From Pseudovirgaria hyperparasitica (lineage: Eukaryota; Ascomycota; Dothideomycetes; Acrospermales; Acrospermaceae): DNA of 64,000 nucleotides. Positions 1-20,500 of the stretch are shown one piece after another (positions within the stretch are counted from its first letter, which is position 1; every line of letters starts with the position of its first letter). The stretch covers positions 13,074-77,073 of the forward strand of contig NW_022985550.1 of the NCBI RefSeq assembly GCF_010093815.1, read 5' to 3'. The position numbers and the translations under genes were made by a program. The notes under the pieces are model-generated. The model saw only the letters and a list, made by a program, of their open reading frames with translations. It was not told where the DNA came from and made no database searches.

Positions 1-430
1 ATATATATATAGCTTATATTATTATAGAGATTCTAGTAGTCTATATAGATAGTACTCTATTAAAATTAGAGTATAAGACTATTTTTAATATTAATATCTC
101 TTTATTAATAGAGAGAGAGAAAATATCTTTTATCTTTCTTAGTAGACCTATAGTAGAATTCTAAGAAGAGTATTATTCTAAAGTTTTATATAAGTATAGC
201 TATTATTAATAGCTATATATAGATTATCTTTTATCTAGAATCTAGTAGTCTATAGAGATAGTACCTTATTAAATTAAAAGTATTTAAACTTTAATACCTC
301 TTATAGATAGAACTAGAAGAAATATTCTTTATCTTTCTTAATAAATCTATAGTAGAATTCTATAAAGGGTATTATTCTAAAATTTTAAGAGAGTATAGCT
401 ATTACTAATAGCTATATATAGCTTATCTTA
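1..430. repeat. About 209-bp direct tandem repeat, AT-rich
   Basis: The stretch at about 32-230 recurs, diverged, at about 241-429. Shared blocks include the start (CTAGTAGTCTATA), the middle (ATCTTTCTTA, CTATAGTAGAATTCTA) and the end (TATAGCTATTA, AGCTATATATAG). The first 20 bases of the window match the end of the unit, so a third copy probably continues upstream. No coding content is seen. It could be a subtelomeric satellite or the repeat region of a decayed element. Confidence 0.7.
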
Positions 431-807
431 TATAAAAAGTAGTAGTATTCTATATAAAGTTAACTAGTATAGACTCTAAATTTAGTACTAAGCTATTTAT
501 ATACTATTTATATCTTATAAGTATAAATAGGGAGTTAATAATATATATATAGTCTATTCACGCCCTATTAATAAGTAAGTAAATACCTAGTATATAGCTA
601 CCTAATTAACTAGGGATATACCGGTCCTAGAGGGGTATAAATAATATACTAACTAGTAGACTAAACTATCTCTCCTATATACTCGACTATAAATCTAATA
701 TCTAAGGAGGTATAGAGATAGATAGAAGTTAATGTATAAACCGTAATAATAGACTAGAGAATAGTACCTAACTTACTATACGATTATATATATCGCGTCT
801 AGTCTAA

Positions 808-907
808 AATAATAATGATTACTACCACAAGGTAATAATGAAAATCACTACTATAAGATAATAAGGATTACTACTACTACGGTAGTAATTATCATCACCA
901 CGACGGG
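808..907. repeat. Minisatellite, about 25-bp unit
   Basis: About four diverged units of the form TAATAATGATTACTACCACAAGG follow head to tail. A related array of ATAATAATAATTATTACCAC type lies at about 1,128-1,187. RIP-type transitions separate the units. No function can be read from it. Confidence 0.55.
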
Positions 908-1440
908 GCTTATTCATAGTATGGTAGTTATCTACCCGGCACTAAGGGCATAGATATAAAGGGAGCTATCAACTAAGGAATTAAACTATCCTTCGTAAAT
1001 AACCTATAATAGGTTAAATAGGCGGATTCTCTTTAAAATCGTTAATTATAAAGGGTGTATAATCCATAACCTAATAGCGTGCGTTAAGTCTAGTCACGAA
1101 GGCCTATTAGGGGAGGGAGGGTAATGTACACGATAATAATAATAACTATTACTACGGAATAATAATAATTATTACCACGATGGGTGGTTAGGGAAGCCTA
1201 GTATCAAGAAATAGTTTCCTATGAGCCCGGTAGAAACAGGTCGGATAACGCTCACTTATAAGCGGTCCGCTTGTAGCTTAACCCTACGCTACTAAAGTTA
1301 AGACTATTATATGGTTTATTATATGCTATTCTAGACGACATATCTAGAAGGTTTACCGTTCTATGTACGCCGACGTACGGACCTATAAGAGTAGCGTTTG
1401 TAGTATATTAAATCTTAGGGTATTTAAAGGTTATAGAAGC

Positions 1441-1462
1441 GTCTAGAATCGGCGATTCTAGG
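1441..1462. repeat. Palindromic 19-nt motif, founding example
   Basis: CTAGAATCG-G-CGATTCTAG has 9-bp inverted arms around one central base. Copies were read at 1,443, 2,084, 2,198, 3,653, 3,707, 3,777, 5,332, 6,284, 7,963, 9,001, 9,869, 10,101 (weak), 11,181, 15,072 and 16,858 (start positions). The least mutated arm reads CTGGAATCG, so the pre-RIP form was probably CTGGAATCG-N-CGATTCCAG. Copies lie in spacers, in one probable intron (7,963) and in frame inside three pseudogenes (2,084 and 2,198 in the lysine-rich gene, 3,777 in the 280-residue gene, 6,284 and 9,001 in the SNF2 gene); others (11,181 and 15,072) lie within the RecQ span. Confidence 0.8.
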
Positions 1463-1873
1463 TGCTTATTTATATTAAGTGATGAAGTTCGTAGATACGT
1501 ACGAAAATATAAAGAACTAAGAATTAATAAGACGGCTGAATGCCCACTCTTTTAGTATTACGGTCTAGCTATTAGTCTACGGCTATAGTATTATAGTTAT
1601 GGGCCTACCCTAGTACTAGATTATAATTTACTAATAACTACTTAAATCTTATACGCATGTCCGCACTTAAGAAAAACCCAACCCTTTAACTACTTAAGTC
1701 CATGTCAATATTATTAGGGTCGGTCGAATCTACCAATAAGGGCGGCGGGAAATCTAGGTTAGATCCAGGGAACGCTGTATCATAGTAAAGTTCTTAAACT
1801 ACGTGTTCGTCCTTAAAAGGGCCATAATTAGCAAGATACTATACCTAGGTAGTAAGCAGCCGGTCTTAGTTAA

Positions 1874-3584
1874 TAATAATGCCACTATTAGGCATACTAG
1901 GCTATGTATCGATCGTTGGCTGTTTAGATAGATCTAAGATCCGCGACCTAGAATCACCCTTACCATCCGATACGATAGCATCAGTGCCCTTAGGAGATAT
2001 ATACGATAACGTGGTAGTAATAGTCGGTATAGTTAGCGTAATTAAAGGAAAAACAGGAGGAGGGTTAAGGTCCGTAGAAGGTCCTAGAATCGGCGATTCC
2101 ACACGTTCCTTAGAAATAGTACTAGAGTCTACGAGGGGGTCTAGGGGGTTTATCCATATAGTATTATCGGGCACATTATCTAAAACCTTAGAGGCGTCTA
2201 TAATCGCCAATTCTAGTGCCTCCTCTAGTATCTCATTACTAAGTTTAACGCGCTTAACGGCCTTACTTAAATCGCTATACGACGCTATACGCTTCTTCCT
2301 TATAGTTACTTCGGCTATAGAAGACTTTTCGGCGGTATCAGCTGGCGGCTTCATACGACGTAATAAATCCTCTTCGTCACTCTCGTCGACTTCCTTAGAC
2401 GGGTTAAGGTCGGGATCGTTATACTTTAGCTTATCCCGAACTTACTATGTGGCGAGCTAATACGTAAAGCTAATGTTAGACCAATAATCATAGAAAATTA
2501 GACGACCGAGCGACTCCCTAAGTTAGCAAAGTACGGCGAGTTATCGCTCCTAATAATTAGTAGAAGTCTCGAATCTAGGTTCTTTATATACGGGCTAGGC
2601 GAGCCGAAGACAAAGACCCTCTACGAGAATTTTAGGGCTCCACGTAAGTCTCTCGAGCCGCTTATAGGGTGGAATCAAACGGTAGTATTCCTTAGAGCTA
2701 TAGAAGTATAGATCGATGTAGATATTAGGTCTATAGCCGCCCGCTCTAGCGCCACCTAGTATATATATAATCTTCGCGATAAAAGTAAATCTAGTATAGA
2801 GCTTGCCTTAATTCTCGAGACGCGAAATTCTCTCCGCTATAGCTAACCAGAACTACATAACGTAGTAGTATCTAACCGAGCGGTAGATAATAGGTTTACC
2901 TATTACTAGTCGATCAATAAAGAAAGCTATCGCCTAAGGTCGTAGACACCTACTAGGAAGCTTTGGGTCGTTAGAGATTATAAAGTTACTATCGTTTTTT
3001 TTGCGCTTTGGCGCTTTGGCCTTTTTTATAGCTGCGGCTATAACTAGAGTAGTGCTAGTCGGCTTTACGGTATCGGTTTAGTTTACCTTTAATCTTTTCG
3101 ATGGCGTTCTAACTACTTTCCAGACTTTAGATTTTAACGGTATTCGCGGTAGTAGCAAGTTAGAGGCATCGGGTTCGGAATCCGGATTATTAGGAAGTTC
3201 GCCATCTATAGGCGGAGGTATAGAACCTAAATCATTAGTATTATCTTCGGGTTCCTTTACCGAAGATAGTTCCGTAGTAGAGTATAGCGTTTCTATAGTC
3301 GGCTCTTTTACTACTATACTATTCTTAAGTAGCGGTGCGGTCTTAGACGTTTTACCGGTCTTACTTATAATAGAATCGGCGGTATTTTTAGTCTTAGAAC
3401 CCTTCTTCTTCTTCTTCGCGGGGGATAGTTTATTAGTTACTAGAGGACGGGCTACCACGGCTCGACCATATATAACGTTATCCCTAATTATATCCTCAAC
3501 GAAACGTGTACGGTTAGTATAAACTTCCTAAGATAGAGCTAACTTAATACTAGCGGCGCGAGCCGCATGTACACGAGGTGTCAT
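1874..3584 (-). pseudogene. RIP-damaged gene of unknown function, lysine-rich
   Basis: I do not recognise this gene. A single minus-strand frame runs from an ATG at 3,584 to about 1,874. It is broken almost only by TAG/TAA at positions that fit former CAG/CAA codons, so the ancestor was one exon of roughly 560 residues. It begins MTPRVHAARAAS, carries a basic stretch (AKKKKKGSK) near residue 50 and a second one (KAPKRKKN) further on; both look like nuclear localisation signals. The C-terminal third is acidic, then Pro/Ser/Thr-rich. Two copies of the 19-nt palindromic motif lie in frame near the C-terminus. It follows the next upstream pseudogene on the same strand, and its role is unknown. 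Confidence 0.6.
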
Positions 3585-3612
3585 CGGTATATATTAGATA
3601 GGTAGTTCTACG

Positions 3613-3735
3613 GTAGACGGTTAGTATAGAACATATATATCTTAAGAAGGGCCTGGAATCGTCGATCGTAGACGGTTATAGGGAACATATATATCTTAAG
3701 AGGGGTCTAGAATCGTCGATCCTAGACGGTTATAG
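3613..3735. repeat. 54-55-bp tandem repeat carrying the palindromic motif
   Basis: Two units (3,613-3,667 and 3,668-3,721) and the start of a third share GTAGACGGTTA, an ACATATATATCTTAAGA core and one copy each of the 19-nt motif (3,653-3,671 and 3,707-3,725). The array lies in the spacer between the two unknown minus-strand pseudogenes, just upstream of the ATG at 3,584. It may therefore have been a promoter or terminator repeat of that cassette. Confidence 0.7.
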
Positions 3736-3829
3736 GGAAAGACTATAGAGTATATATAATAACGAATGCGCGGGTATTGGAATCGCTAATCCCAAGGATC
3801 ACTAAAGCCGGGATTTAATATACCTAGAA

Positions 3830-4676
3830 ACTTAATAGCGCGCGTTTCGATCGACGGGAATACAATACTAAAGGATATTAGTAGATGATAGTAATTCGTA
3901 TGATTAGAAACCCACTAGACAATAGGTATAATATTAAGTATATCCTCCGCCAATAGCACGACGAGTAAGATATCAAATGGTATTTTATCATTATTAGAGT
4001 CCTCGAAAGCCATTCGTATACCGAGAAGGGTAGAATAGGCTCCGGCGTCTATAGCCCATCTATACTTCGATATTCTAAGGATAGGATAAAGAATCCGAGC
4101 GACGCTACTAACATCCGGGTCCTAATGATTAACCGTAGTTTCGACGATGCTTTTATACAAACCTCTTAGAACGTTACAACGTTTTTTTATATCCGACTTC
4201 GTCTTTACACATGTTAGTATAGCCACGTGTATAATGATTTTTATATTAAGATTATATGGCTCCATTACTAGAATTTCCTCAGATTCCAAAACCTTATAAT
4301 CCATGAGGGCGGCCACGAGTTCCGGACCGGCTCCTTTACGGATAACTACGTTAATACCACCGAAACGCTTAGCATCCAATTACCTCTACGTAGCGTTCAC
4401 CAAACAGACGTCCTTCTCTAGTATCTATATAATATTACCGACCACGAACTTTACGCTATTCATACGTGACGGTATTAGTTTTTTATAAGATTAATAGAAA
4501 CGATCGTTCCCTACTAGATTGTTCAGGTCTTAAAGTATCTATTAGGCATAGCATATGGATCTAGAAGTTTTAGCCGGTTCCGAAGGTCTAGTATCTTCCA
4601 CGGGTGGCGGAGCTAATTATACCGCCTTCCCTTTTCCTTTGCTTAGCTTAGTCAGAAGGCTCTAATCGCCTACCAT
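3830..4676 (-). pseudogene. RIP-damaged gene of unknown function, about 280 residues
   Basis: I do not recognise this gene. From an ATG at 4,676 one minus-strand frame continues to about 3,830. It is interrupted only by TAG/TAA (and one TAG-TAA pair) that are consistent with former Gln codons. It starts MVGD, then has a short basic run (SKGKGKAV) and a Pro-rich linker. A folded-looking domain follows (FGGINVVIRKGAGPELV onward) with alternating hydrophobic stretches. A diverged copy of the palindromic motif (3,777-3,795) falls near the 3' end. It sits between the SNF2 pseudogene and the lysine-rich pseudogene on the same strand, so it is probably part of the same co-oriented gene set. Confidence 0.55.
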
Positions 4677-5367
4677 TTTATTAAACCTATATAATCTATT
4701 TAGAGGCGTCTATGAATTACGATTACTAATAAGATAAACGAACGAATTATAAGACTTATTAACGTATACAAGAGTAAGTAAGTTAATATAGAAGAGAAAA
4801 AATTATAAGGTGGTATATATTCATATACCTTCGTGCAAATACTAAGCTAGTCTTATTTAGGTAGTAACATTATAAAAGTGAATAGAGGTTAATGAACCGG
4901 ATACAATATAGATAAGTAGTAAAGTAAAGTAATACTAAGTAAATGAAATGAACCCTCCCTTACGTCGCGTAAGTCGGAATAACGTAATACTAGTTCGAAG
5001 CCTATACTTACGTATACTAAGATGTTACTAGAAGTAAAAGGCTGTCGGCGCTCAACGTTTCCAGACGCCTCTAGTACAGAGTAGAACCACGTTTTAAAGG
5101 TATAGAAAACGAGTATAGGAATACTTAACGGAGCGTATAAGACAGTATTAGAAATTATAATAATATTTAACTAGGCGTCGATTATGAAAGTAAGGAGATA
5201 TAATAAGCCATAAGGACGACCATCCTTATATAGACTATTAAAGGAAAGATACTAGTAGCCACGAACACAATAAAATAACCAGTAGAATATAAATACACGC
5301 TATTAAAGAAAAGTACCAACCATAGACGCGACTAGAAACGCCGATTCCAATCCCTCCTAGAAGATAG

Positions 5368-8300
5368 TTAAGCCTTACCATTATCTCCACCTATGTTTAT
5401 TAGTATCTCATCTATTATAAACTACTCTACTATATAAGTAGTCTAGTCCTTATTAACGAATCGTTCGGTAGCGTGTTCTATTAGGAAGAGGTCTTTATAG
5501 TCTTCGATTAACTATATTATACGGATCGTAGGCTCTAATATAGATCTTAATAATATTATTTTCTCGCTGGCTTCTCGTAGTAAATGGATCCTATCTCTAC
5601 TATCTACCTCGTCCTTACCATAACTATAGGCACTACGCTTGGTAGGGTCCTTATCTAGGCGGTTATTAGGGCGGCGCATAGTATTACTAATAATGTTAAA
5701 TGTACTAGTAGCCCTCTCCGTTAGATTAGTAACACCTAGCCCCTCGCTTTGGTTAATAACGATACCACGGTTGAATATTAGGAGGCGTTTTATAACTTTA
5801 AGCACGGGAATAGCCGTGGATTCCGGTTTATATAGCTTCTTAAACTCCGGATCGTCTTCATAGATAATTAGACCGAAATCATGGTATACATCTCTAATTA
5901 TAGGATACTAGCCCTTAAGGATAGACGGAATAATAATATCGAGAGTAGTGTCGAGGGTGCCGTCCACGAGACTAGATAGAGTAGTAAACATCTTAGGTAA
6001 TGCTCGGCGAGTCATGGCCATGGACATTTTAGATGCCCATGTGTTTAGCATGTAGTACTTAGAAAGCAGGGTCGGTAAGAGCTATTTAAGTCGAAATATG
6101 CGACCTAAGAGCTGCCGTAGAAGAGCGAGATTAGCTGGATAAGAAAAGAAATGAACATTTCTATTCGCCTTCTATAAATTAAAACTAACCCCTATAATTC
6201 CGTATATATTAACGAACCAATCGATCCGGGAGGGAACTCTATTAATGTCGTCCTAATGGGTATTATCGCCGTCTAAGAACGCACTAGGATTAGCGATTCT
6301 AGGCGCCTCTAGTAGGTCGTCCTTATTACCGGCAATGTCGTTAGGCGTGGTCTTATTAAAGGTAGAGTCTATCTTCTAGTTGAATAGTCTATACTTTTAT
6401 TATCTAGTTAGCGCGTCGTCTTCGGTAAAGACACGTCCGACGTACTTAAAGCCTATTAGCCGTAACATATAATATACTAACTCACGCTTAATAGAATATT
6501 ACACCCATACGATGCCCTTCTCCTGGTACTTAAAGTACTACGTTATAGCTTATATAGCGAGTACTACGAGCCGAGGGGACCAGTTAAATAGAATACCTAG
6601 TAGTGCCACTAGCACGTTCTCTACTTCGTTAACTAGCTTAGTAAGTCCACTCTTAGGATGGCTTCGATCACGAGCTTAGGCGATATTTAGTAGGAAAGCG
6701 TATATCTAACGCGGGCTTACGTTCTTAGAGCCAGGACGAGGGAATTTTAGCTTCTATTCATTATCTTTCCTTAACGCTACTATGTCCCTACGCATGAAAA
6801 AGTGTGAATACCTAATATAGATAATAGTAGATATTAGTACTAAGTTCCGCTGTATGCGGAGTTCAGGCTTAATTCCGAGGGTCGGTGAGGATTCGGCTAA
6901 ATAAGCTTCTTTTGGGTCTCCTTACTAATCTTATCGTACTTAGCCTACACCTCTAGTAGATACGCTACTTTAATCTATACCCTTTCGGCCCGCGGAATAT
7001 AGTTACGGATTAAAGTAGCATTATTATCGCTATACCGTAAGTCGTTCGTGCGGCGAAGTATAAATACTCCGTATATTATACTTAAGTACTAGCCTTATAC
7101 TAGCTCTAATGGCGGCTTAGGATCATTACGGCCGGAACCTAGGTACTAGTACTTAAAGGCCGGAGAAGTTAGATATATACCTAGGACGCGATCTAGTTTT
7201 TCCTACGAAACGTCCGGATATAGTCTTACTATTATCGATAGAAACTTATATAGGTTAGACTTCGCCTTGAATGGCGGCTGTATACCGGAAATACCGTTAA
7301 AATAATCGTTAAGGGATGCGCTCTATTATATAACTTTAAGAAGACCCTATATATTACTAGTAAAGTTATAGACGGGAGTACTAGTCACGAGGACGTAGTA
7401 TTTAATATTAAGCTCGTAGATGGACCGGTTAGTCGTAGAGTTAATATTCCGGAAGCCGTATACTTCGTTAGCTACCGTATAGTCGAAGCACTAAGCGAGG
7501 TTCCAAGGGGCATCATATAGAAAATACTACTTCTCTATATATTTCATTTCTACTAATGCGACGGCGTCCTAATTTCTAGATTTAATGTTCTAGAACTCCG
7601 CGTACCCTCATATTTTCTCTCTCTACCTAGTAAGGCTATAACGGGCGTTAAACGTTGCGTAGGACATTAAGATAATAGTACGGGCGTTAATCTCCTCCGG
7701 TCTAAAGTACTAACTCTTCTATATTAAGATACCTACTAAACGCGTAGTACTAGTAGCTGATTTCCCGACCCTACTATTACCGTAACTAGTAATGACACGG
7801 AAGAGCGAGGAAAAGTCCGTAATCTACTCGGCGGTTTAGGTAAGAAGATTTACGGGTACTAATAGTAGGGCGGGCTTCGGAGAAGATACTAGAATACCCT
7901 TCTCGCGATTAGTGATGCGCTCGTTAATTAACTACATTTTAGTTAGATATATATAGGCGCGTCTAGAATCGGCGATTCTAGAGGCCACTAGGGGAAGGAA
8001 CTTACATGTAGCTAGTGCGCTAAAAGTGTAAATGTTTTACCTAGTCCGACACCATCTACTAATACTACACCCCGTGAAACTAAACTATCCATGCTCTTTC
8101 GGAGCTACTAAGCTCCTATAAGTTACTACTAATATAGAGTAACGCTAGGATTTATATTAAGAATCTAAGGTTTTCGGGTACTAGTAACTCGGAGACCCAC
8201 CGCGGCTATAACATAGTCTTATGGTTGGGCGGCGCCGTTATTACTCTAGTTATTTAACCAATCCTATAGTTTACTTCTCTTCTCGCTACCCGACTTTAAC

Positions 8301-9853
8301 TAATCCATAATTAGTACTATATTACTAAGATCCGTGTTAATGCGTGCGGTGATTACCGCCTTATTATTATTTACTTAAATAACCTCGTTAGTTTTAATCT
8401 CGGAGATCTTTTAAGTACCGCTTAAGCCCTTTATAAGATTCTTAATAGTAAGGTAAGAGTAGTACGGACACGTTTCTAGTTTAAGATAATCCGGATTAAC
8501 GACGTTACGATCCTTATAAGTTACTATAAGCATGGCCTAGAGCTCTTCTTTGGAGGGGAGACTCTCGAGATATAATCTAGCGAACACACGCCGATCGCCT
8601 ATATTAATGCCCTCGTCTTCGACTATAAATTCTAGATTATTATAGGTATCTATTAATACTCCCGATGGATTTAGACCGTGTTTCTATATATTAGTCCACG
8701 CTTTAGTATGGTACTCGGGTAATTTTTTCCTTAGTGCCTTTATAGGCTTTAAGGAACGTTTTAGTTTTACTAGGGTAGCTATAGGTCCTTCTTTTATAGT
8801 AGTATCTAGTATAGCTAGTGCGTCTAGCATGGGTGCGTCGAGGAGCGAGTTCGGATCTATTACTTAGATGTCTTCTATCGGGTCCTAATCTATAGTATCG
8901 CTAGTATTCTTACTAAGTTCCCTATTCCGGTTAGTGGTAGAGTTACCATCGGCGGCTTAGTGTTAATCTAAACGCCTTCTAGCTTTTTTCTTAGAAGGGC
9001 CTATAATCGTCGATCCTAGACGGGCCTATAGAGTGATTAGTAGATGAGTAGGGGGAACCTAGTTAGTAGGAACTTTCCGAGGCATTATAGACATCTACCT
9101 CGCGTTAGTATAGATAATTTTCATACGAAAGTTATCCTCGTATTCTTGCCCTTAGTTACGGGCATGGCGTCGGTATTTAAGTATATCGTTAAATAGAAGA
9201 TATTTATCGTTCTCCGATATACGCATTCGCGAAAGAGGATTCGTACGATTAGAAGATAGCTTAAGATCTATCCGGAGAATAAGAGACGCGCGCCACTAGT
9301 AATCTTCCTATTTACTACGACTAGCGGCTATTACTATAAGGTAATGGGCACGGTCTTCTTTAATAAGTTCTATAGCTAAAGTAAACTAGCTAAACGGATG
9401 CGAACCTTCTAGAATCCACGGGTTAAAGAACTCTACATAGTATTCATTAAGTAAGGCGTTAACTTTAGGATCCTAGAATAAAATGGCTGCTTTAACCACG
9501 CTAATTCCGAGGTTAGAGGTAATCTTACTAAGGCGACGGTCCTTTTCTAGCCTAGGTTCCTTTTTACGCTCCTATCTAGCCTCTTTTCCCGGCTTTGGCT
9601 CGATAGATGCGCCTTTTCCTACTTCGCCTGCTTCCTCCTCTATAGTAGCGACCTTAAGAAATCGCTCTATGGCTTTAGAATTATAGTCTATTAAGCTACT
9701 ACCTACGATAAGAGCGGATAAGGTGGTATATTTCTTCTATAACGCTGCTCTGGTTTCGCGAATCTCTTTAGTAGCTATATCTAAAAACGGATCGAGAAAA
9801 TTATTATCTTCTTTCTCTTATGCTTAAATATTAACTAGAAGAAAAGGAGCCAT
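5368..9853 (-). pseudogene. RIP-damaged SNF2-type ATPase/helicase
   Basis: The frame starts at an ATG at 9,853 (MAPFLLVNI), and a natural TAA lies at 5,368-5,370. In order on the minus strand: a long charged N-terminal region; the Q-motif-like segment before the ATPase; Walker A GVGLGKTF (about 8,032-8,053); the Ia-like segment LLLVPVNLL (about 7,850); a motif III-like stretch YVLVTSTPVYNF (about 7,370-7,400), matching the SNF2 LTGTPxxN block; a helicase C segment IVWVxYSIKREL (about 6,510); and motif VI LLGRIFRLK (6,081-6,131). Breaks are mostly TAG/TAA for Gln. At least one intron (GTAAGT donor just after Walker A, about 8,010) is needed. The family is SNF2-like DNA translocases, probably nuclear; what substrate it acted on is unknown. 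It is clearly non-functional now. Confidence 0.8.
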
Positions 9854-10249
9854 GATCTCTAGAAGGGTCTGTAAACGGCGATCGGTGGGTTAAATATATA
9901 TATATCGAAAAAATGAGATTACGTAAGAAAATAGTAAAATGATATAGGAGAGATGGAGAGAGTTAATGGAAATAATATATATAAATATATATTTTGGGTC
10001 TTATCACGTGTTATTACATAACCTTCTTATGTTACGTTATAACGTGTTACAAGTGAAGTGAATTAACCTATCGGTTTTATTAGAAATTCCAGCCCCTACT
10101 CTAGAAATCGCTATTTATAGGGTGCCCTATAGTTAAGGTCGTAGATTCTAGTTCTTATACTCTTATACTAAATGCGTAACTACGTTACTAGGAGAATTCT
10201 TTTCACGTCTCCCTCTTTATATTCTATTTAATATAGGGCGACGTGGATT

Positions 10250-13200
10250 AAGAGTACTAACTTATGGACGTTATCTATAGGCATTAAGATACTCTATAGA
10301 CTTTATATACTTCTAGACTTAAACTATAATAACTATAAATTCTACCGACCCTATCGACTAACATCTATAACTAGTGGAGTACCCTAATTAAATTCTAGAA
10401 TAGCATTCGTAATTTCATACGCCCCCTCTCGCCGCTTACGCTATAGCTAACGGGCTAATTCACTAGAGTCCCATGCACCTTCTCTTATTACCATTGGTAG
10501 TTGGCCCGTTTTCGAAATTCCAAACCCTTCTAACCGGGTAGCCTATTATCTAGATAGGTGGACTACTATTACGCTAAGAGCTCGATATAAACCAAATTTC
10601 TATATATACTTAATATTTCCCGGGAGCCGACGGAACCCTAGTTATCCCTCCAGTCTAGGCTCCCACCACGGATATAGAATTTATAGCTAGTAATAGGTGA
10701 AGTAGTACACGTGTTTGGGCATGATATTACTCTTTCGCATTTGGTCGGCTAGTACACGCTTAACCATGTCTATAAGTCGTCTATTATCTAAGTAGTACGT
10801 AGTATAGACTCCACTATTAGTACCGCATACATCGTAATAACTGGCCTACCATCGTCTCTACTCGGATAATAACTAGACGAGACTTATATATTATCTATTT
10901 TATAGACGACGTTCTTATGCTACCAGTTTCATAGACTATTATTATATAAACATTCGTTGATTATAAGTGTCCTCGCCCACGTAATCTTCGTCTAGACACG
11001 CACTAGGAAGTTCTAATACCCGCCCTTTCGCTGGTCTTCCTGCCTCGTCTATACTATTACCATGTACACGTGCTTATTTCATCTTATTCCACGTATAAGG
11101 CGGCTGGCGCGACGGTTAATTGGTCTAGGGTAGGTCGGGTTAACTATTTAAGGAACCCATAGGTGAGCTACTAGGAAGGTCTAGGATCGCCGATTCTAGA
11201 TCCTCCTAGAGGGTCTCTAAATGTAGTAGGAATGTTAATAGGGTAGGATCGCATACATCGTACTTCTCTTTAACCCCGTTATAGCTCTTTCTACTAAACG
11301 ACCCGTCGAGATACTCGTCTAGGAACACCCTACGACACCCTATCTAGTTTATATAAGTAAGTATCATCGCGTTCTTAGTAGTGGCTTCTTCTATCTTTAC
11401 GAAGATAGCGAGGCTTCTCGTTAGGTAGTCGCGACCGGCCCGGCCGCTTTCTTATATATAGTCTAGGAATGAAGAAGGAGCGCCTAAGTGTATCACGACG
11501 CGAATAGTAGCTAGGTTAACACCTAGGCCGAGAGCGTTTATAGTAACTATGATACCTTCTTCTTCGGCGATAAATCCGTTAAGGACCTACTCCTTAGCTA
11601 TACTCTCTTAATAGTACGCATTATAACCAAGCTCCCCTACGAGGCTAATAGCTTACGTGACCATAGGCGTAAAGACGAGACATCTACCGGTAATGCCCTA
11701 TCTAATACGTCGCACGTATTCCGCTTAACTACGGGTACCTCGAGCCTTCTTAGGTAGGCTCCTAAGCGTATACGTAATATTAGGCCGAGTTATAGCTTCG
11801 CGGTGGATGAATACATCTCTAGCGTTTATATATATGGCTTTCTATAGCCCTACTTTATCATCGGGTGGTAGGGTTATACTTAGGAGTATAATCTACACCT
11901 CTAGGTTAACTATTATTTAGATGTCGCGAAAGGCCGGCCGGAACTAGTTATTATTAATGATATAGTGGTACTTATCGATAATCACACGGTCGAGTAGTCC
12001 TAGGCTATTTATATGGTTTATAAACTATATGAACGGTTCGCCTTTTATAGACTCGGGCGTAATAATAATAATAGATATCCCGTAAGGGGGGTGCGTAGGG
12101 TCGAATGCTTCTATAGTAATACTACTATTATAATAACGGCGGATAAGGTTATCTCGAAGGGCCTTTAGCGGGATAATAACTAGTATTACTCTATCTAGTA
12201 CTATTAACGCAGCTAATATGAAAGGTAGACTTTTACCTAAGGTAGTCGGCTATATAACTAGTATCGGACTACGGCCTTCGACTAGCCCGGTAAATACCTT
12301 TTCTTATTAGGGTTATATTCTAGCGTTTTCATTACGGAGTACGACCTTAATAGTCTTATACGGGTCCTTCTCCCGGAGTGCAGCCTAATGGTAAGCCCGT
12401 GCTTATAAAATTCGTGTCTAGCTAGGTGTAACCTTATCGAACATAGATACCCCGATCTCGTGCTACTATACGCGACTAATCTAGAAGTACCTCTCTATTA
12501 CCGTCTTTACCGCACTAAACGGGCTACTTATATCACGACTATACGCGATCTAGATAATCTTTATACTATGACTAGCTTACTTATTAAGGATAGCGGTTAG
12601 ACTATTATCTCGGGTACCCGGATTCTAGTCCTCGTTCTATAGACTATTCTTATTAGCCTCGTCTATATAGTTAATCTCGTACTTCTAAAGCTTACGCTTT
12701 ATAATTGTAATCACGACTTAACGATAGTCTATAATACCCATGTTAACTACTCCTATACTAAGATGTATCTATTCCCTTATCGCATGGCTTATACGCTCGC
12801 TAGTCTAGTACGGTAATAGCTATATATGTATAGGGACGACTATCTATGTTAGATCCATGAATCTCTCGAGTTATTCCTTCCACGGGATAACTAACCAAAG
12901 ATACCATATTAGAATATTATATACGACCGGCGGTAGATATCGAAGAATTAGGCGGATATCTCCTTTACGTATATACCCTTTATGGTACTTTATTATAATG
13001 TAAAGCTTATTACTATAAAGAATAATATTACGTATATCACCCTATCGCGTGTTACGGTACCGTATACTTAGGATTTCTAGTCCGCGTGTAGGCTGTCTAG
13101 CTATTATATAGATAAGAATAAGTAGCTAACTAAGAAAGACTCGAATCTATTCGAGCTAGTCTTATGCTTTTTGTGTATCTAACTCTCCTCTGGTAAAGAA

Positions 13201-16200
13201 CGCTAACTGTATATTCTAGTCCTTTTTAACTCGCCTTCTAAACCATGAGGACTACTCCTAGAGGCACGCTAACTAAAGGAAGCTATACCTGATTATGTTA
13301 TCAGCCGTATTATCCGTAAGTAACTACCATAGAATTACTAGTACTCCCTCTATAGAAGATAGTAGAAGAATATTAGTATATAATGTTCGCGCTATTCGAT
13401 TTATTAAGCTAGAGACTATCCCTCTAAATGCATTTATTAGAATTATATGTGCATTATACGTAAGTGTATTATTAACCTACTGTATCTTTACGTCTATGGC
13501 TATGTTACCCACGATTTTAAGACCGTAAGCTCTAAGTTATATCTACTATCTAACTATACCGCGACTACCGCGGAGGAGATACTAGTTAATAAATGGTGAG
13601 AGATATCTAAGGATATCTATAGTACCACCCGCTTACTTATAGAAGACTTCCTAGATGGCCTACTTAAGGATAATAAGGCGGGAGAACTTAATAAGTACTA
13701 ATAGAGTAGACGTATAGTTCTATGGTGAAAGGAAGCCCCCGTTTCGATCTATATATAGTAGGCCGGATAATGGGACTAGTGCGGCCTCGAATAAGTATAT
13801 ATATAGCGTCTATTATAGTAATATAATGATAAGCTATATATAAAGGTAGGCGATGCGAGAAAGAGGGCGGGTTTAGATACTAAACACCTCGTATAGTTTT
13901 ACCCGACGTGTTTCCAGATCCCACTTACTAAGATTACCTTCTACTCTATAATAGTTATTAGTTATACTCGTCTCGGGTTTAGAGTCGGAGCTACTATTAC
14001 TCTCGCCGGATGGCTATTCCGTAGTAATATAGTCTAGAAGCCGAGTAATACACGCCTTAGTCTTAGCGTTAAAGACTAAAGCTAGGAGGTAGTAGAGATT
14101 CTAGTACGCTTAGATGGCCCCGATAATAAGACGCTAAAGATGCTTCGAGTAATCGCGGAATATTTTCTAGTTCTAATAACGTGCGAGAGGTCGCTATAGC
14201 CTAGGCTCTATTATAGAACGCGCTACTTCTAGGCATAGTAGTCTATTATAAGCGCCTACTATCTTATAGGCTTAGTAGAATAGAACTCTTAGACTAGATA
14301 ATACTATCTTTAGCGGCCCTTCGGTAGATATCTCTAGGATATTAGTAAGTGCGAGGATATCCATGCCTTAGAAGTAGTTAATAAATTTTATGCGTTCTAG
14401 CCATGGATTAACTTTGTCGATAGCGCCGGTTTATACTATATAACCTTCATCTTTAAGGACGTTCTACTAATTTAACTAGAGCTAATCGAGTGTGGTATTA
14501 ATTAGTATATGAGTGTATATAGTGGTACGTGTTATAATCGGGATGAGGCGGTTCAACCGGCCTATATTATATAGGTATTAGTATGGTATATTATCTCTAT
14601 ATCCACGTATCTTATCATCCGCTCTAGGTGGAGCCCCCCTACGCCTATTAAAGAACGCTACATGTTCGTTTTTAATATGTGATTTAAGATTCTTTAAAAG
14701 GCTAAGAACTAATCCGTAGTTCTCGATAATATATTAGAACCCTCTCTTAACCGGAATATATCTTATAGGCCGTGATAGGGCAGCGGGTATTCGAAGGTCG
14801 TCGATTATAGTAGCGGTATAACTAAGCGAGTAAATATAGCTTTTAATAATCTTATGATACTTCGGTCTTATTCCTCGGTATTCTTAAAGGAGGTGGCGGT
14901 CTAGCGCGGATAGGAGGATGGCGCGCTTATAATCTCGATAGATAATTACTCCGGTATCAAGGTCGACGACTAGTAGTAAATCTATAGACATCTATATATA
15001 TTCGTATAGTATTAGTAGATTAGCGTCGGGAGTAGACTATGATATATATAATTATATTCCTATAGATAGGTGTGGAAACGGCGATTCTAGACGGCTCTAG
15101 AGTAAGGAGTTTTTAGGTCCTTTGGTTTTCGACGGCCGTGCCGTAGGAAATCAATAGCTACTACTAGCCCCGATCTTCGGCTAAGGTATTCTACTATTAG
15201 TATAGTCGCTACTAAATTAGTGTATTTTATTCTCTAATCTACCTTATCATTATCTATAGTACGCATGTCCTATGGCGTACTTAGCCCTAGGCTATGGTCT
15301 TATAGATTAATTAGATTTATAAACTACTCTAGCGCTATATTCATAATATTTTCTAAGGTTATTCTCTCGATCGGGAACTACCTAGGTAGCGTAATGTCTC
15401 CATTTAAAATCTAATATAAATATAGCTTAACACCATAATAAAGTCGTCTAAGCCATAGATAACATCGGTCTACAAGGCCTAGGAAGTCCTCTAGTATACT
15501 AACCCTTATCTTCTAGAAGAAAGAGTCCGTAATTTCGGGTGGTAGTAGAACGAATAACCCGTCGCTAAACCTCTCGCGGATTAACGCCTAGTGCGCGCTA
15601 TAACTTAACCAATCGTTCATTTATTTCTACTGTCTTATCCGCTTAAAGGCCTCCCCTTACTATATATATATATTAATATCTAGGTCCTACGGTTATTCTA
15701 GACTTGGCGTATAATCTCCTATGAGTTGATTAATACGGGCATATAGGCGAGCCTTTATAATTAACCGGATGCCTTGCCTAGTACTAAGGGTGAATGTGCG
15801 GTCTGTTTTCAGTGCCTCCTTAGTAGCGTTTATAGCTTTATATATATCCGCGAGTGCTAGGCGACGTCTAATCCCGATAAGACGCGATGTGTATACTAGC
15901 TTAACGATCTTAAAGTAGAGTATACTAGCCTAGTCTATGAATATACGTACTAAGCGTTCCCTAGTCAACGTCGTATCCCTAATAATAATCTATAGGGGAT
16001 TAAGGCTATAAGACGCTATATCTACCGTCTTACTATCTCGCTATTCTTATATAAGTAATCTAAAGTAAAGTAGCGTTAACGGTAAACCAATCTCTAATGC
16101 GCGATTAAGAAGTTATCTAACTATGTTTATATCTTTAGGGAAGTATTATAATATGCCTATCTAATAAAGATAACTTACATTTATATAGAGCTATACTTTA

Positions 16201-16840
16201 TATTTATTCCGTGACGACGGGCTATCGGGGTTAGTAAATGACTCTATAACCTCCCTAAGCATAGCCTCATACTTTACTCTTAACTTAGCCCGGATTTTAT
16301 TACTTACTCTCGTGGTCGTTAGCGGAGTTCTCGTAGTTAACTATTCGTTCTAGTTAGATGTATCGTTACGGCGCCACTTTCTAGGGGGATTTATAGACTA
16401 ACGCTCTTCTTCGTCGTCCTCTTCTCGCTCTTAATCAGTATTATAGACTATTATCTCTAGTTATGCTAGTACTATACGAAGAGCTACCGTGGTGCTAGAA
16501 GTTATATAAGATTATTAAGAGGGTAGGGGAGATGTCGGAGGCGGCGGGCATGTATTAGGAACGAAATCGTCTTCTTTATTATTATTAGGTAAGTCGTTAT
16601 TCATATTAGTAACGTGTAAATAGGCTAGAATCTATTGCTCGTTTAGCTAACGAGCCGCTACCTCTAGTAATCGTACGATAAATAGTGGCGGGCTAGGAAA
16701 CGATAACGGTTGGAAGAAGACGGCTTAAGCTCTATCGCTCCCGCCGATAGGGAAAAGTTTAAATATAATGTCCTATGCTTAACGTATACTATCTATATTA
16801 GGGAGCGGTACTAAGGGGGGTGCTATAGCTTATAAAGTTC
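10250..16840 (-). pseudogene. RIP-damaged RecQ-type helicase (TLH-like), very long
   Basis: The helicase core is readable on the minus strand. Walker A is PTTLGKSLPF (about 12,225-12,250), followed by a block that ends IIPLKALRDNL. A DExH-box equivalent VIIDKYHYI (11,961-11,985) is followed by the C-terminal lobe, with HLGAPSSFLDYI and ESGRAGRD (about 11,428-11,460). A RecQ-style CRRVFLDEYLDG lies downstream. This is the diagnostic RecQ motif VI. Coding-like sequence with Gln-to-stop breaks continues upstream to about 16,840 (acidic EEDDEEE and Pro-rich parts) and downstream to about 10,250. The architecture resembles the telomere-linked RecQ-like helicases of fungi. The start codon is not clear and may have been RIP-mutated; ends are approximate. 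Confidence 0.75.
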
Positions 16841-17223
16841 GTAAGTAGTAGAATAGATTAGAATCGGCGATCCTAGAGGTGTCTTAGAGTACACGATTCT
16901 ATAAGGATTACTAAGGTCCTTAGACGTATGCGTAGGTCGGCGTGTAGTATACCTAGGTACCGATCGCGCACGGTTGGGAAAATCAAAGTAAAAATCGCGA
17001 AAAATACGTAGTTTTTATGTATACTCTTCGCTACCCCCTCCGTGAAAATAATAATTATAAGTTAGCTAGATATAACTTTCGACCATGCGATTTCTTAATA
17101 TATAAAAATTATTCGGATGTAGGCGTGGGAAGGGCTGCCTTTCGACTCTACCTTACGGTGTCTTTTAACTACCTAGTTTTCCTACTAAGAGTCGTGCATG
17201 GTTACCGCCTAGGCCCGTATAAT

Positions 17224-17246
17224 GTTCTTTCGTATATCGAAAGAAC
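17224..17246. repeat. Perfect 9-bp inverted repeat (hairpin)
   Basis: GTTCTTTCG and CGAAAGAAC flank a TATAT loop. The copy is perfect despite the surrounding RIP. It sits just upstream of a GC-rich island. A role as a replication or recombination feature, or as a terminal repeat, cannot be decided from sequence. Confidence 0.5.
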
Positions 17247-17289
17247 GGCTCCTAATTGTTAGCGTTCATTCGCTTATAAAAAAGGATCA

Positions 17290-17500
17290 CTTGTACGTAG
17301 TTATATACTATGGTGCGGCTTCGGCCCTTTAGCGCCTAGGACATAGCCCGGCCATCAGCGTCGGTGCGTTTTAGGTACCGCTGCTCGAGGCATGCGCGCG
17401 TCGCGCTATAGTAGCGCACGGCGTTTAAGCGTGCTAATGCCGGTAGGGTAGGCCCTATGGTACTTCCGCACGGCCCGTGGTGTATACTTTACGCACAAGC
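17290..17500. other. GC-rich island inside the RIP compartment
   Basis: About 200 bp are clearly richer in G+C and CpG (for example GGCATGCGCGCGTCGCGC near 17,390) than the AT-rich DNA on both sides. No open frame of note is present. It marks the change from the helicase-gene block to the strongly decayed 17.5-20.95 kb tract, and may be a promoter-like remnant or simply CpG-rich sequence that gave RIP few CpA targets. Confidence 0.5.
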
Positions 17501-20500
17501 CTATATCCTTAGATAGAAAAATGTAACATGTCTACATTCATAGCGATTCTCGGCCAGAACGTGACTAGGTAACTATAGAATAATTTAGAATAACTACGCA
17601 TTCTAGTCGGAGGTTAGTATTATAACCGACCGACGCTTTCACCTATAAAAGAATAATAAATCTTAGTCCCTAATGAGCCTTTAAGGCGAAAGACATCTAT
17701 TAGTTTATACCTAGCTATCTAGGACTTCTATTACTTATTACTTTTCCTTAACGATTTCTCCCTGCTTTAAATAACCCTAGAAGTAGAAGTACTAATTACC
17801 GCGATAGTTATATCTAATTCCTTCCGCTAGTTCTTATTTAGTATAGTATAGAGCTTTATAATATAAGTCTCTAGCCTTTCGTTCTAATACTATAAATTCT
17901 ATATAGCGTGCCTTATAGCTATAAACTTCTCTATAGAAATCTATAGGGCGGCGGGACCTAGAATAGAGAGAGATAGACTAGCGCGGGCACGCTAAGAATT
18001 ATATAAATTAGCGAAAAGATTTAACGATCGGTATAGAACTATATACCTTTAGTATAGAAACTTCTAGATTAGAGCTATCTTCTCTAAATTTATAGCTCTT
18101 TAGTATATATAAGAAAGGAACCTTAGCCTTTTTACTAGAACCTTTTCTAGAAATTTTAATATTACTAGTATATAGAAAGAAGTCTAAAGTAGTAGAGATT
18201 TTAGTACTATTATAGAGATTAATATATATTAGTAAGAATCTATAATGATTTAAGAAAATAATATTATCTAGTAATTATAGTAATAATAGCTATAGTAGAT
18301 TCTAATAAATCCTTATAGATCTTATTAGAATCGTACTTCTAGGTATAACTCTTACCTTAGATATATAGCTCGTAGAAAGCCTTCTCTAAGGCGTTATAAT
18401 CGGTAGTACTACGCTCCTTATTAGTAGGGGTTACTAGAGGCCTAGTAGTAATCTATACTAATATAAGTAAATCTACGTAAAGTTCTTTAAACTTACTTAA
18501 ATATCTATAAGTAATAATACTTCTTAGTTATATAAGTACTATATATTATAGATTTAGTACTACTATAAGTAATATATAATAGAAAGCGATAACTATAATA
18601 ATATATAGCTAGATTATTAGAGCCTGGCCTAGGTTAGGGTAGATTAATAGCTTTTAATATATCGGTAATATATACGAGATAGAGATTATTTAAAGGCGTC
18701 TATTTCTATACTAATTACTTTAGAGCGTTAAGATTTCGGGAAGCTATATTATAATTATTACTAATTTATATAGATTATTATAAATTATACTATTACTAGC
18801 TAAGGATGGTATAAAAATTAGTAAATTACGTAAATTATACTAAATTATAGTAAATCTATATAAATCTATATCTATAAGAATTAGGTAATATATCTAATAA
18901 TCTAAAAAACTCTATAAAGAGTTAAGAAGTTTTTTAAAGAAAGGAATATTTCTAAGAAAAGATTTTAATATAGGTAGTACCTAGACTTACCTAATTATAT
19001 TACGTGATACGCTAGGCCTAATTAGGTAATCTTATCTATATAAGAAGTTAGGATAGATAAAATCTAGTTTATTAGGAAAATACTTATATAAATCTTAGAT
19101 TAGTAAATATTAGTAAATATCTAAGACGAAGTATAGAGAATAACTAAGGTCTTATAAGACTTAGAATAGGGATATAGAGATAGATAATAATCTAGGTTAC
19201 TAAGGGTAGCTTCCTAGAGAGAAGGGATAATTATTAGAACTTAGTCTTAGGTAGAACCTAATCTATATATACCTTAGCTAATAGAGTTAGGAGATAACGT
19301 AAAGGGCGGTAAATAGTTATATACTAGATAGATTAGCGTCCCTTTATATATATACTCTTAGATTTCTACTAAAAGAGTTCGGTAGTAATTCGTTCTATAA
19401 TAGAATACACCCTATTATTCTATCTAACTACACTACTATCTAATAACCCTATTCTTATATATAGAGTGGTTTACGAAGATAAGAACTTTCTATTATTTAC
19501 TATTTTATATTTAAATAGATAGCGTGAATACTTACTTTAGAGTCTAAGTAGAAGTAATTAAACTATAATAAACCTTCTCTAATAAGGATGCGGCTTATCT
19601 CTAAAGTAGTCTATTATATAGAGTATTCTAGCTTTTCTAAAGGTAAAGGTACTTAGAGAGCTTAGAAGAGTATAAGTAGATTTATAATAAGTATTAATAG
19701 AGTATAAATAGTAACTAGCTAGTAGGCGAGTAAAGTAGTAATTATATTAGTATAAGTTTAAATTAATTACTATAGAACTATCTCTAGAGATCGGGTCTAA
19801 AGAGTCTATATAGTTCTACTAAGGTCCTCTAATTAGAATACTTATTCTAAGTATTTAGTATATTACTTAGAATACTAATATTCTATTTCTAATTATCTAG
19901 TAGACTACTTAGAATATCTATTCTAAGTATCTATAATTAGTTCTCTCTATAGATGCCTACTTTATCCTTAGATTATTATCTAAGGCTATCTATTATATTA
20001 TAGATACCTCTTCTATATATTATACTATCTCTTATACCACTCGTACTAGAGTCTATATATCCCGCTATGGCCCTAGCTAGTAATTTATTATAGTATATAA
20101 CTATTTACTACTATTTATACTATCTTCTAACTATATTAGCTAAGATATATATAGATTAGATTATATCTAAGACTAAGTTCTAATATAGAGTATTATAGAG
20201 TACTTACTATTATCTATAGTAATAATAACTTTAGACTCTTCTACTATAGGTTTAAAGAGTAGAGTAATAAGTACCTTATATAGTTATAGATAAGTAGATA
20301 TAAAAGTATAGTTAAGGCTTTAGTAATTACTATTAGACTATAGTATTATTAACTACTCTTACTATAATACTAGGTACTATATAAGGTAATAGACTTAGAT
20401 ATATTTATAGAAGAATATAGAGAGATAGAAGTATATATAGAGTAGAAGTAAAAAAAAAATTTTAGTACCTTTTTAATTATAGATTTAATTATTACTTATT

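What the first reader, a model, noticed from the sequence alone, without database searches (positions are those of the whole stretch)
1874..16840. Four co-oriented genes in a RIP block: RecQ helicase, SNF2 ATPase and two unknown proteins
Reading TAG/TAA as former Gln or Trp codons recovers four minus-strand frames in a row. Two are helicase-type motors with clear motifs (RecQ GRAGRD; SNF2 GVGLGKT and GRIFRL) and two are unrecognised proteins, one with nuclear-signal-like basic runs. Helicase genes are common in fungal subtelomeres, but a four-gene set of this order suggests a mobile or subtelomeric cassette that was duplicated, since RIP requires duplication, and then silenced. It is the best candidate here for an undescribed multi-gene system.
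Basis: partly seen in the sequence, partly recalled or inferred. Interest (0 to 1): 0.85.

Follow-up and report, generated by a model that had tools for sequence, protein, structure and literature searches.

The report
Dead four-gene fungal telomere-end element
Near the end of a fungal chromosome lies a mutated block of four genes, two of them DNA or chromatin motors, that also sits in the same orientation near four other contig ends and appears to have been silenced by the fungus's own repeat defence.

Summary
All four units recur in the same order near four other contig ends (C1, C3, C10, C31), Macro side outward. Three copies aligned over 13.9 kb differ at 5-7% of sites, 99.1-99.9% of them transitions, mostly at CpA, with one 1-bp indel: near-identical copies, then RIPped. 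Every copy found contains stops.

The inner boundary is the same at 5 of 5 loci although the flanks differ. Two junctions interrupt the same dispersed repeat at different positions. A sixth end (C20) stops at that boundary and reaches telomere repeats after about 8 nt.

Best reading: a telomere-linked-helicase (TLH/Y'-like) subtelomeric element with extra chromatin genes, joined to chromosome ends at a fixed inner terminus. A RIPped subtelomeric RecQ repeat and a RIPped SNF2 gene cluster are published for another fungus. I saw no paper combining RecQ, SNF2 and Macro, or describing such a terminus, in the listings of seven searches. Conservation in other fungi could not be tested.

The parts
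1..17262 (-). Cassette (element); inner end at 17262, outer end not resolved (AT-rich repeats of about 200 bp, then an assembly gap)
   Evidence: 93.3% identical to C3 over 15.8 kb; 93.5% to C10 over 13.9 kb with one gap, 94-95% to two C31 stretches without gaps; C10 and C1 homology continues outward to window ~778 and ~134
17224..17262 (-). Inner terminus CTAACAATTAGGAGCC followed by a 9-bp hairpin GTTCTTTCG-ATATA-CGAAAGAAC
   Evidence: Same boundary at 5 of 5 full loci with different flanks; 6 genome hits for the motif with up to 3 mismatches, reversed control 0
14994..16826 (-). U1: coding unit of unknown function, about 600 aa, with a basic run; 3' end uncertain
   Evidence: Held-out codon score 0.092 against at most -0.002 in the other five frames; present in 5 of 5 copies; no Pfam hit to E 0.5; stop density at chance
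10300..14985 (-). OrsD-RecQ helicase gene (telomere-linked-helicase type); 3' end approximate, coding signal fades after ~11.1 kb
   Evidence: OrsD and DEAD in one frame; OrsD, DEAD and Helicase_C in one frame in C3; PDB RecQ hits down to 1.3e-13
14662..14961 (-). OrsD domain (PF12013)
   Evidence: E 0.0031 in window, below cut-off; 5.1e-6 in C3; 7.7e-8 in C10
11866..12303 (-). DEAD/RecQ helicase N-terminal ATPase domain
   Evidence: PF00270 4.5e-6; C10 2.1e-9
11431..11697 (-). Helicase_C domain with GRAGRD
   Evidence: PF00271 4.1e-9
8007..9854 (-). SNF2 gene exon 1 (starts MAPFLL; motif I GVGLGKT near 8060)
7933..8006 (-). 74-nt spliceosomal-type intron of the SNF2 gene, GTAAGT...TCTAAC...TAG, which accounts for the frame change from exon 1 to exon 2
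   Evidence: Seen in C2, C3 and C10 and returned by a motif scan of C3; no transcript evidence
5400..7932 (-). SNF2 gene exon 2 (motifs Ia-VI, GRIFRL); 3' end approximate; the C2 copy has a 1-bp deletion near 6860
   Evidence: PF00176 at 7323-7880, 3.2e-4, 9.2e-9 in C10; PDB SNF2 hit 1z63 2e-4; in 5 of 5 copies
1470..4730 (-). Macro-domain gene with a long tail holding basic runs (KKKKKGSKTK, PKRKK); ends approximate
   Evidence: Coding signal in one frame; in 5 of 5 copies
4131..4400 (-). Macro domain match (profile positions 1-90 of 118; 1-109 in the C10 copy)
   Evidence: 2.5e-5 in window, 8.4e-7 C3, 5.9e-8 C10; over the curated cut-off in C2, C3, C10 and C31
4..434 (.). Outer AT-rich tandem repeat, period about 199 bp
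17263..17779 (.). X: flank of this copy; in contig C20 it runs into telomere repeats at this same boundary

Best explanation
A dead subtelomeric element of the telomere-linked-helicase (TLH/Y'-like) kind. Shown: four co-oriented coding units in fixed order (U1, OrsD-RecQ, SNF2, Macro) near five contig ends, always with the Macro side outward; an inner boundary at the same place in 5 of 5 loci with different flanks; copies near-identical before RIP (three measured); every copy found broken by stops. Inferred: the element sits between the chromosome arm and the telomere. It spread by being joined, at a fixed inner end, to short or broken chromosome ends, and was then copied or homogenised between ends. 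Its genes, when intact, acted on DNA ends and end chromatin: RecQ on recombining ends, SNF2 as translocase or remodeller, Macro as ADP-ribose reader, U1 possibly as the DNA-binding or joining factor. Duplication then exposed all copies to RIP.
For: All four units in the same order at C1, C2, C3, C10 and C31, 5 of 5 with stops inside (U1, RecQ, SNF2 exon 2, Macro). Helicase_C-to-Macro gap 7.03-7.04 kb in C2, C3, C10 and C31. Five of five have the Macro side outward and the inner terminus 15.8-33.8 kb from the contig end. C2-C3, C2-C10 and C3-C10 differ at 937, 901 and 738 of 13,908 columns, 99.1-99.9% transitions, mostly CpA, with one 1-bp indel. Inner terminus shared at 5 of 5 loci, flanks unlike each other. 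In C3 and C31 the flank is the same dispersed repeat cut at two different positions; the 12 uninterrupted repeat copies shown for each continue past the cut with CT and CTA, matching the first 2-3 bases of the element. C20 has X, then about 8 nt, then telomere repeats.
Against: No recognised transposase, recombinase or reverse transcriptase in the frames scanned. Telomere repeats were not seen on the five copies' contigs: the three-unit pattern was found only on C9, C12, C16, C17 and C20, and C2 has an N gap and about 10 kb of AT-rich DNA outside the element. No telomere tract remains at the inner junctions, unlike yeast Y' (recalled). For the C20 end the element shares no obvious microhomology, and the C10 and C1 junctions were not compared with an uninterrupted counterpart. 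Outer end unresolved. The proteins are degraded, so the biochemical roles rest on family names. The Macro call is modest: no PDB hit to E 1 from one copy, E 0.17 at best for a chain that I take for a viral Macro domain (recalled) with a four-copy profile, beside unrelated eIF3 hits at 0.16-0.18, and an AlphaFold model with pLDDT 45.
Confidence: 0.7

Rival explanations
1. Ordinary subtelomeric segmental duplication: a host gene cluster near one end was copied to other ends by ectopic recombination, without an element of its own, then RIPped.
For: No transposase recognised; copies only near contig ends; near-identity before RIP. A published multi-gene RIPped cluster in Parastagonospora nodorum was read as endogenous genes (PMC3017866, passages).
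Against: Copying between ends should give varied breakpoints or shared flanks, yet the inner breakpoint is the same at 5 of 5 loci with different flanks. No intact donor cluster was found: the searches for U1, RecQ, SNF2 exon 2 and Macro returned only the five broken copies at 78% identity or more, plus distant RecQ-family genes at 27-38%.
Confidence: 0.2
2. A true DNA transposon or Starship/Helitron-type element that happens to survive only in subtelomeres.
For: Exact end with a hairpin; junctions inside a dispersed repeat at two positions.
Against: No DUF3435, HUH/Rep or transposase domain in Pfam scans to E 0.1-0.5. The base next to the terminus differs among the loci and the end is not CTRR (Helitron rule recalled). 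No interior copy among 6 terminus hits.
Confidence: 0.08
3. Remnant of an endogenous giant virus that brought helicases and a Macro protein.
For: Helicases and Macro domains occur in large DNA viruses (recalled).
Against: RecQ and OrsD sequences are reported at fungal chromosome ends (PMC10532341, passages); a spliceosomal-type intron; no relative of the Macro region in viral contigs (Macro region only).
Confidence: 0.02

Closest known systems
Telomere-linked RecQ helicases (TLH) of fungi, such as Ustilago UTASa/UTASb, Zymoseptoria, Fusarium
   Same: RecQ-type helicase, OrsD domain reported in UTASb, many copies at chromosome ends (PMC10532341; PMC4522978; PMC12857005; passages read)
   Different: In the passages read they are helicase genes or helicase regions (ORF about 3.5 kb; Fusarium table gives regions of 4.3-7.3 kb, though its text gives the same figures for FoTeR elements); here SNF2, Macro and U1 genes lie in the same unit of about 17 kb
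Parastagonospora nodorum repeat X26
   Same: Subtelomeric, RIP-degraded, RecQ remnant (PMC3017866, passages)
   Different: Listed with a length of 4,628 and RecQ only in the passages read; no fixed terminus mentioned there
Parastagonospora nodorum repeat X3X3R8
   Same: RIP-degraded multi-gene repeat containing SNF2-type genes and unknown ORFs (PMC3017866, passages)
   Different: Contains a Rad6/ubiquitin-conjugating gene and tandem Rad5-like genes; no RecQ or Macro gene in it in the passages read; no ubiquitin-conjugating domain found here
Saccharomyces cerevisiae Y' elements
   Same: Helicase-coding element just inside telomeres, amplified between ends (described in PMC4522978 passages)
   Different: Internal telomere tracts at the Y' boundary (recalled) are absent at the five junctions here; gene content differs
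ALC1/CHD1L
   Same: SNF2 ATPase together with a Macro domain (recalled); CHD1L among weak PDB hits, E 0.013, for the SNF2 part
   Different: There one polypeptide (recalled); here two separate coding units in different frames with a non-coding stretch between

Membership tests
TLH / Y'-like subtelomeric helicase element | RecQ-type helicase gene | tested here: met
   DEAD plus Helicase_C, RecQ PDB hits to 1.3e-13
TLH / Y'-like subtelomeric helicase element | Multiple copies confined to chromosome ends | tested here: met
   Five full copies plus a C15 remnant, all within 34 kb of a contig end; counts are lower bounds, and that these contig ends are chromosome ends is inferred
TLH / Y'-like subtelomeric helicase element | Direct abutment on terminal telomere repeats | tested here: inconclusive
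   No telomere repeats found on these five contigs; C2 has a gap
TLH / Y'-like subtelomeric helicase element | Internal telomere tract at the inner boundary (Y' only; recalled) | tested here: not met
   No TTAGGG tract at 5 of 5 junctions
Starship | DUF3435 tyrosine-recombinase captain at one end (recalled) | tested here: not met
   No such Pfam hit in the frames scanned; reads are RIP-degraded
Helitron | HUH/Rep-Hel protein and CTRR 3' end inserted at AT (recalled) | tested here: not met
   No Rep domain in Pfam scans; terminus and neighbouring bases do not fit
P. nodorum X3X3R8 cluster | Rad6-type ubiquitin-conjugating gene beside SNF2 genes | tested here: not met
   No ubiquitin-conjugating domain in the sense frames scanned to E 0.5
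P. nodorum X26 | Sequence homology to X26 | not testable with these tools
   No other fungal genome is searchable here

The most novel reading that the evidence does not exclude
A distinct class of telomere-capturing element: a four-gene unit with its own recombination helicase, chromatin remodeller, ADP-ribose reader and end-joining factor (U1), which attaches by a fixed hairpin-bearing inner end to broken or telomere-proximal DNA and so becomes the new chromosome end.
Probability: 0.2. Interest if true: 0.75.

Novelty: new variant of a known kind. Interest (0 to 1): 0.5.

Why it matters
Telomere-linked helicase genes are reported from several fungi, but how they spread and what they do is, to my knowledge, unsettled. 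A multi-gene unit with an exact inner end, different flanks, and an end (C20) that stops at the same boundary makes it testable whether such genes belong to elements that are added to chromosome ends. The Macro and SNF2 genes would suggest a link between ADP-ribose signalling and subtelomere chromatin.

Tried and rejected
First DNA searches of the genome were misleading. One search was filled by the dispersed repeat at 17778 onward, and one search found only 3 kb of C31 and short pieces; it missed the C3 and C10 copies that local BLAST later showed at 93-95%.

Reading the 9.9-8.0 kb frame as a separate unknown gene: rejected, it is SNF2 exon 1. Joining U1 to OrsD-RecQ by an intron: the motif scan offered one candidate at 15280-15209, whose length does not shift the frame as needed, and none nearer 15.0 kb; left open.

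Stop density as proof of U1: rejected as insufficient. Variable stops reading Gln/Trp/Arg as proof of coding: rejected, since this follows from transitions in any frame.

AlphaFold of the Macro region: pLDDT 45, not used. Alignment A1 had a frame slip in one row (21% identity) and was not used. Viral origin by Macro search: no relatives. Helitron and Starship readings: see membership test.

The palindrome TCTAGAATCGGCGATTCTAGA was first taken for an element-specific binding site. It has 153 places genome-wide (element copies included, up to 2 mismatches) against 0 in the reversed-pattern control. Ten listed sites, picked to lie outside the five element copies, were fetched; 10 of 10 align to one another as a dispersed repeat family, with the palindrome at the same place. 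Parked.
Full report
WHERE IT LIES. The window is contig C2, bases 13074-77073, of an unnamed 35.0 Mb, 59-contig genome. The intron, the RIP pattern and the OrsD-RecQ gene suggest a filamentous ascomycete (inference); the species was not identified. The block lies 13-30 kb from the start of the contig, with a gap of Ns and about 10 kb of AT-rich DNA outside it.

CHECK OF THE OBSERVATION. RIP indices separate window 1-21 kb sharply from the rest. Pfam on reads with X at stops finds OrsD, DEAD, Helicase_C, SNF2 and Macro, all minus strand (the plus strand was scanned only at 1000-6000 and gave nothing). The less mutated C3 and C10 copies give the same domains, mostly with better scores. Two of the window's own hits, OrsD (18.4 against 26.6 bits) and SNF2 (20.4 against 24.9), are below the curated cut-off; in other copies OrsD (C3; C10 and C3) and SNF2 (C3 and C10) pass it. 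In 5 of 5 exons or units of the C3 copy, a codon score trained on the other units and blind to stops prefers the claimed frame. Stop density by itself supports Macro clearly, SNF2 exon 2 with an equally low antisense frame, RecQ marginally, and SNF2 exon 1 and U1 not.

GENE ANATOMY, in reading order on the minus strand. (1) U1, 16826 to about 14994, about 600 aa, no Pfam match to E 0.5. (2) OrsD-RecQ, 14985 to about 10.3 kb; the three domains share one frame in C3, and PDB hits are headed by RecQ proteins. (3) SNF2, 9854 to about 5.4 kb; motif I GVGLGKT is in exon 1, and a 74-nt intron with GTAAGT, TCTAAC and TAG at 8006-7933 explains the change of frame. (4) Macro gene, about 4.7 to 1.47 kb, with a Macro domain over the curated cut-off in C2, C3, C10 and C31 and a long tail with basic runs.

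COPIES. Searches of the genome with U1, RecQ, SNF2 exon 2 and Macro units of the C3 copy give all four, in the same order, at C1, C2, C3, C10 and C31; SNF2 exon 1 was not searched. Every match at 78% identity or more contains stops; the only other matches are three RecQ-family places at 27-38% identity. The C31 RecQ unit is split by about 7.3 kb, and the C1 RecQ and Macro units are also split. The Helicase_C-to-Macro gap is 7.03-7.04 kb in C2, C3, C10 and C31. In the OrsD family search only C10, C3 and an open frame on C5 were listed, not C2, C31 or C1. In the Macro family search C1 was not listed. C2, C3 and C10 align over 13,908 columns with one 1-bp gap. Pairwise differences are 937, 901 and 738, of which 99.1%, 99.2% and 99.9% are transitions, chiefly C/T before A and G/A after T. 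At most 8 transversions separate any two. These copies were thus almost identical when RIP struck.

THE INNER TERMINUS. The element begins CTAACAAT(T/C)AGGAGCC, followed by a 9-bp hairpin (one base changed in C1), at C1, C2, C3, C10 and C31, and the sequence just before it differs at all five. The motif has six genome hits with up to 3 mismatches, control 0: these five and a C15 remnant of about 140 bp that is about 82% alike. In C3 and C31 the flank is the same dispersed repeat, cut at two different places; the 12 uninterrupted copies shown for each continue beyond the cut with CTCTAAAG and CTATC. The element therefore arrived after the repeat, at two positions, with its own end fixed, and with 2-3 bases of possible microhomology. 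For C10 and C1 no uninterrupted counterpart was compared. In C20 the sequence X that flanks the C2 copy stops at the same boundary and after about 8 nt becomes telomere repeats. Whether C20 is an end that never had the element or lost it, the same boundary is marked.

ORIENTATION AND PLACE. In 5 of 5 copies the Macro gene faces the contig end, with the inner terminus 15.8 to 33.8 kb from it. The C3 and C31 contigs end inside the element. Homology between C2 and C10, and between C2 and C1, goes on outward past window 1465 to about 778 and 134, into repeats of about 200 bp. The outer end and contact with the telomere could not be seen.

HOW IT MOST LIKELY WORKED. Shown: order, orientation, fixed inner end, different flanks, near-identity, RIP. 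Inferred: joining of the element to chromosome ends, spread by end-to-end copying, and action of the proteins on ends and end chromatin. No enzyme of transposition was recognised, so U1 or host repair would have to do the joining.

WHAT IS KNOWN. Passages of PMC3017866 describe in Parastagonospora nodorum a subtelomeric RIPped RecQ repeat (X26) and a RIPped gene cluster with SNF2 and ubiquitin-conjugating genes (X3X3R8). Passages of PMC4522978 describe low-GC subtelomeric RecQ genes in Zymoseptoria, and those of PMC10532341 OrsD in the telomere-associated UTASb sequences of Ustilago. PMC12857005 (passages) describes telomere-linked helicase regions in Fusarium, and PMC3411245 (passages) mentions numerous RecQ telomere-linked helicase copies in Leptosphaeria telomeres. 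PMC9910759 held none of the terms asked, and PMC8381367 only a legend. Seven paper searches listed no fungal paper that I could see joining RecQ, SNF2 and Macro in one subtelomeric unit; this rests on listings, capped in some searches, of the open library only.

VERDICT. A real, silenced, multi-gene subtelomeric element: a new variant of the telomere-linked-helicase kind. Interest 0.5, held down by the lack of an intact copy, of other species and of the outer end.

Noticed in passing
window 1442, 2083, 2197, 3652, 3706, 7962, 9000, 11180, 15071, 16857: A 21-bp palindrome (TCTAGAATCGGCGATTCTAGA and variants, up to 3 mismatches) occurs 10 times in the element and nowhere else in the window (0.06 expected). 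One copy lies inside the SNF2 intron. Genome-wide 153 places with up to 2 mismatches against 0 in the control; 10 of 10 fetched outside sites fall at one homologous place of a dispersed repeat family.
   Followed up: partly
window 17778-~19460: A different, dispersed RIPped repeat with at least 34 copies at 90-93% identity; a copy also lies inside the C31 copy of the element and beside an outer piece of the C1 copy.
   Followed up: partly
C28:189477-189848 and C28:191244-191485: An open Helicase_C frame near a contig end, 1.4 kb from a less mutated relative of flank X; possibly another subtelomeric helicase gene.
   Followed up: no
L039 5404-6427 (C2, outside the window): Tandem repeat of period 442 bp near the contig end; a 45-bp piece of it recurs at the end of the C15 locus L047.
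   Followed up: no
window 3613-3739: In-frame 54-bp tandem repeat in the Macro gene, each unit carrying one palindrome.
   Followed up: no
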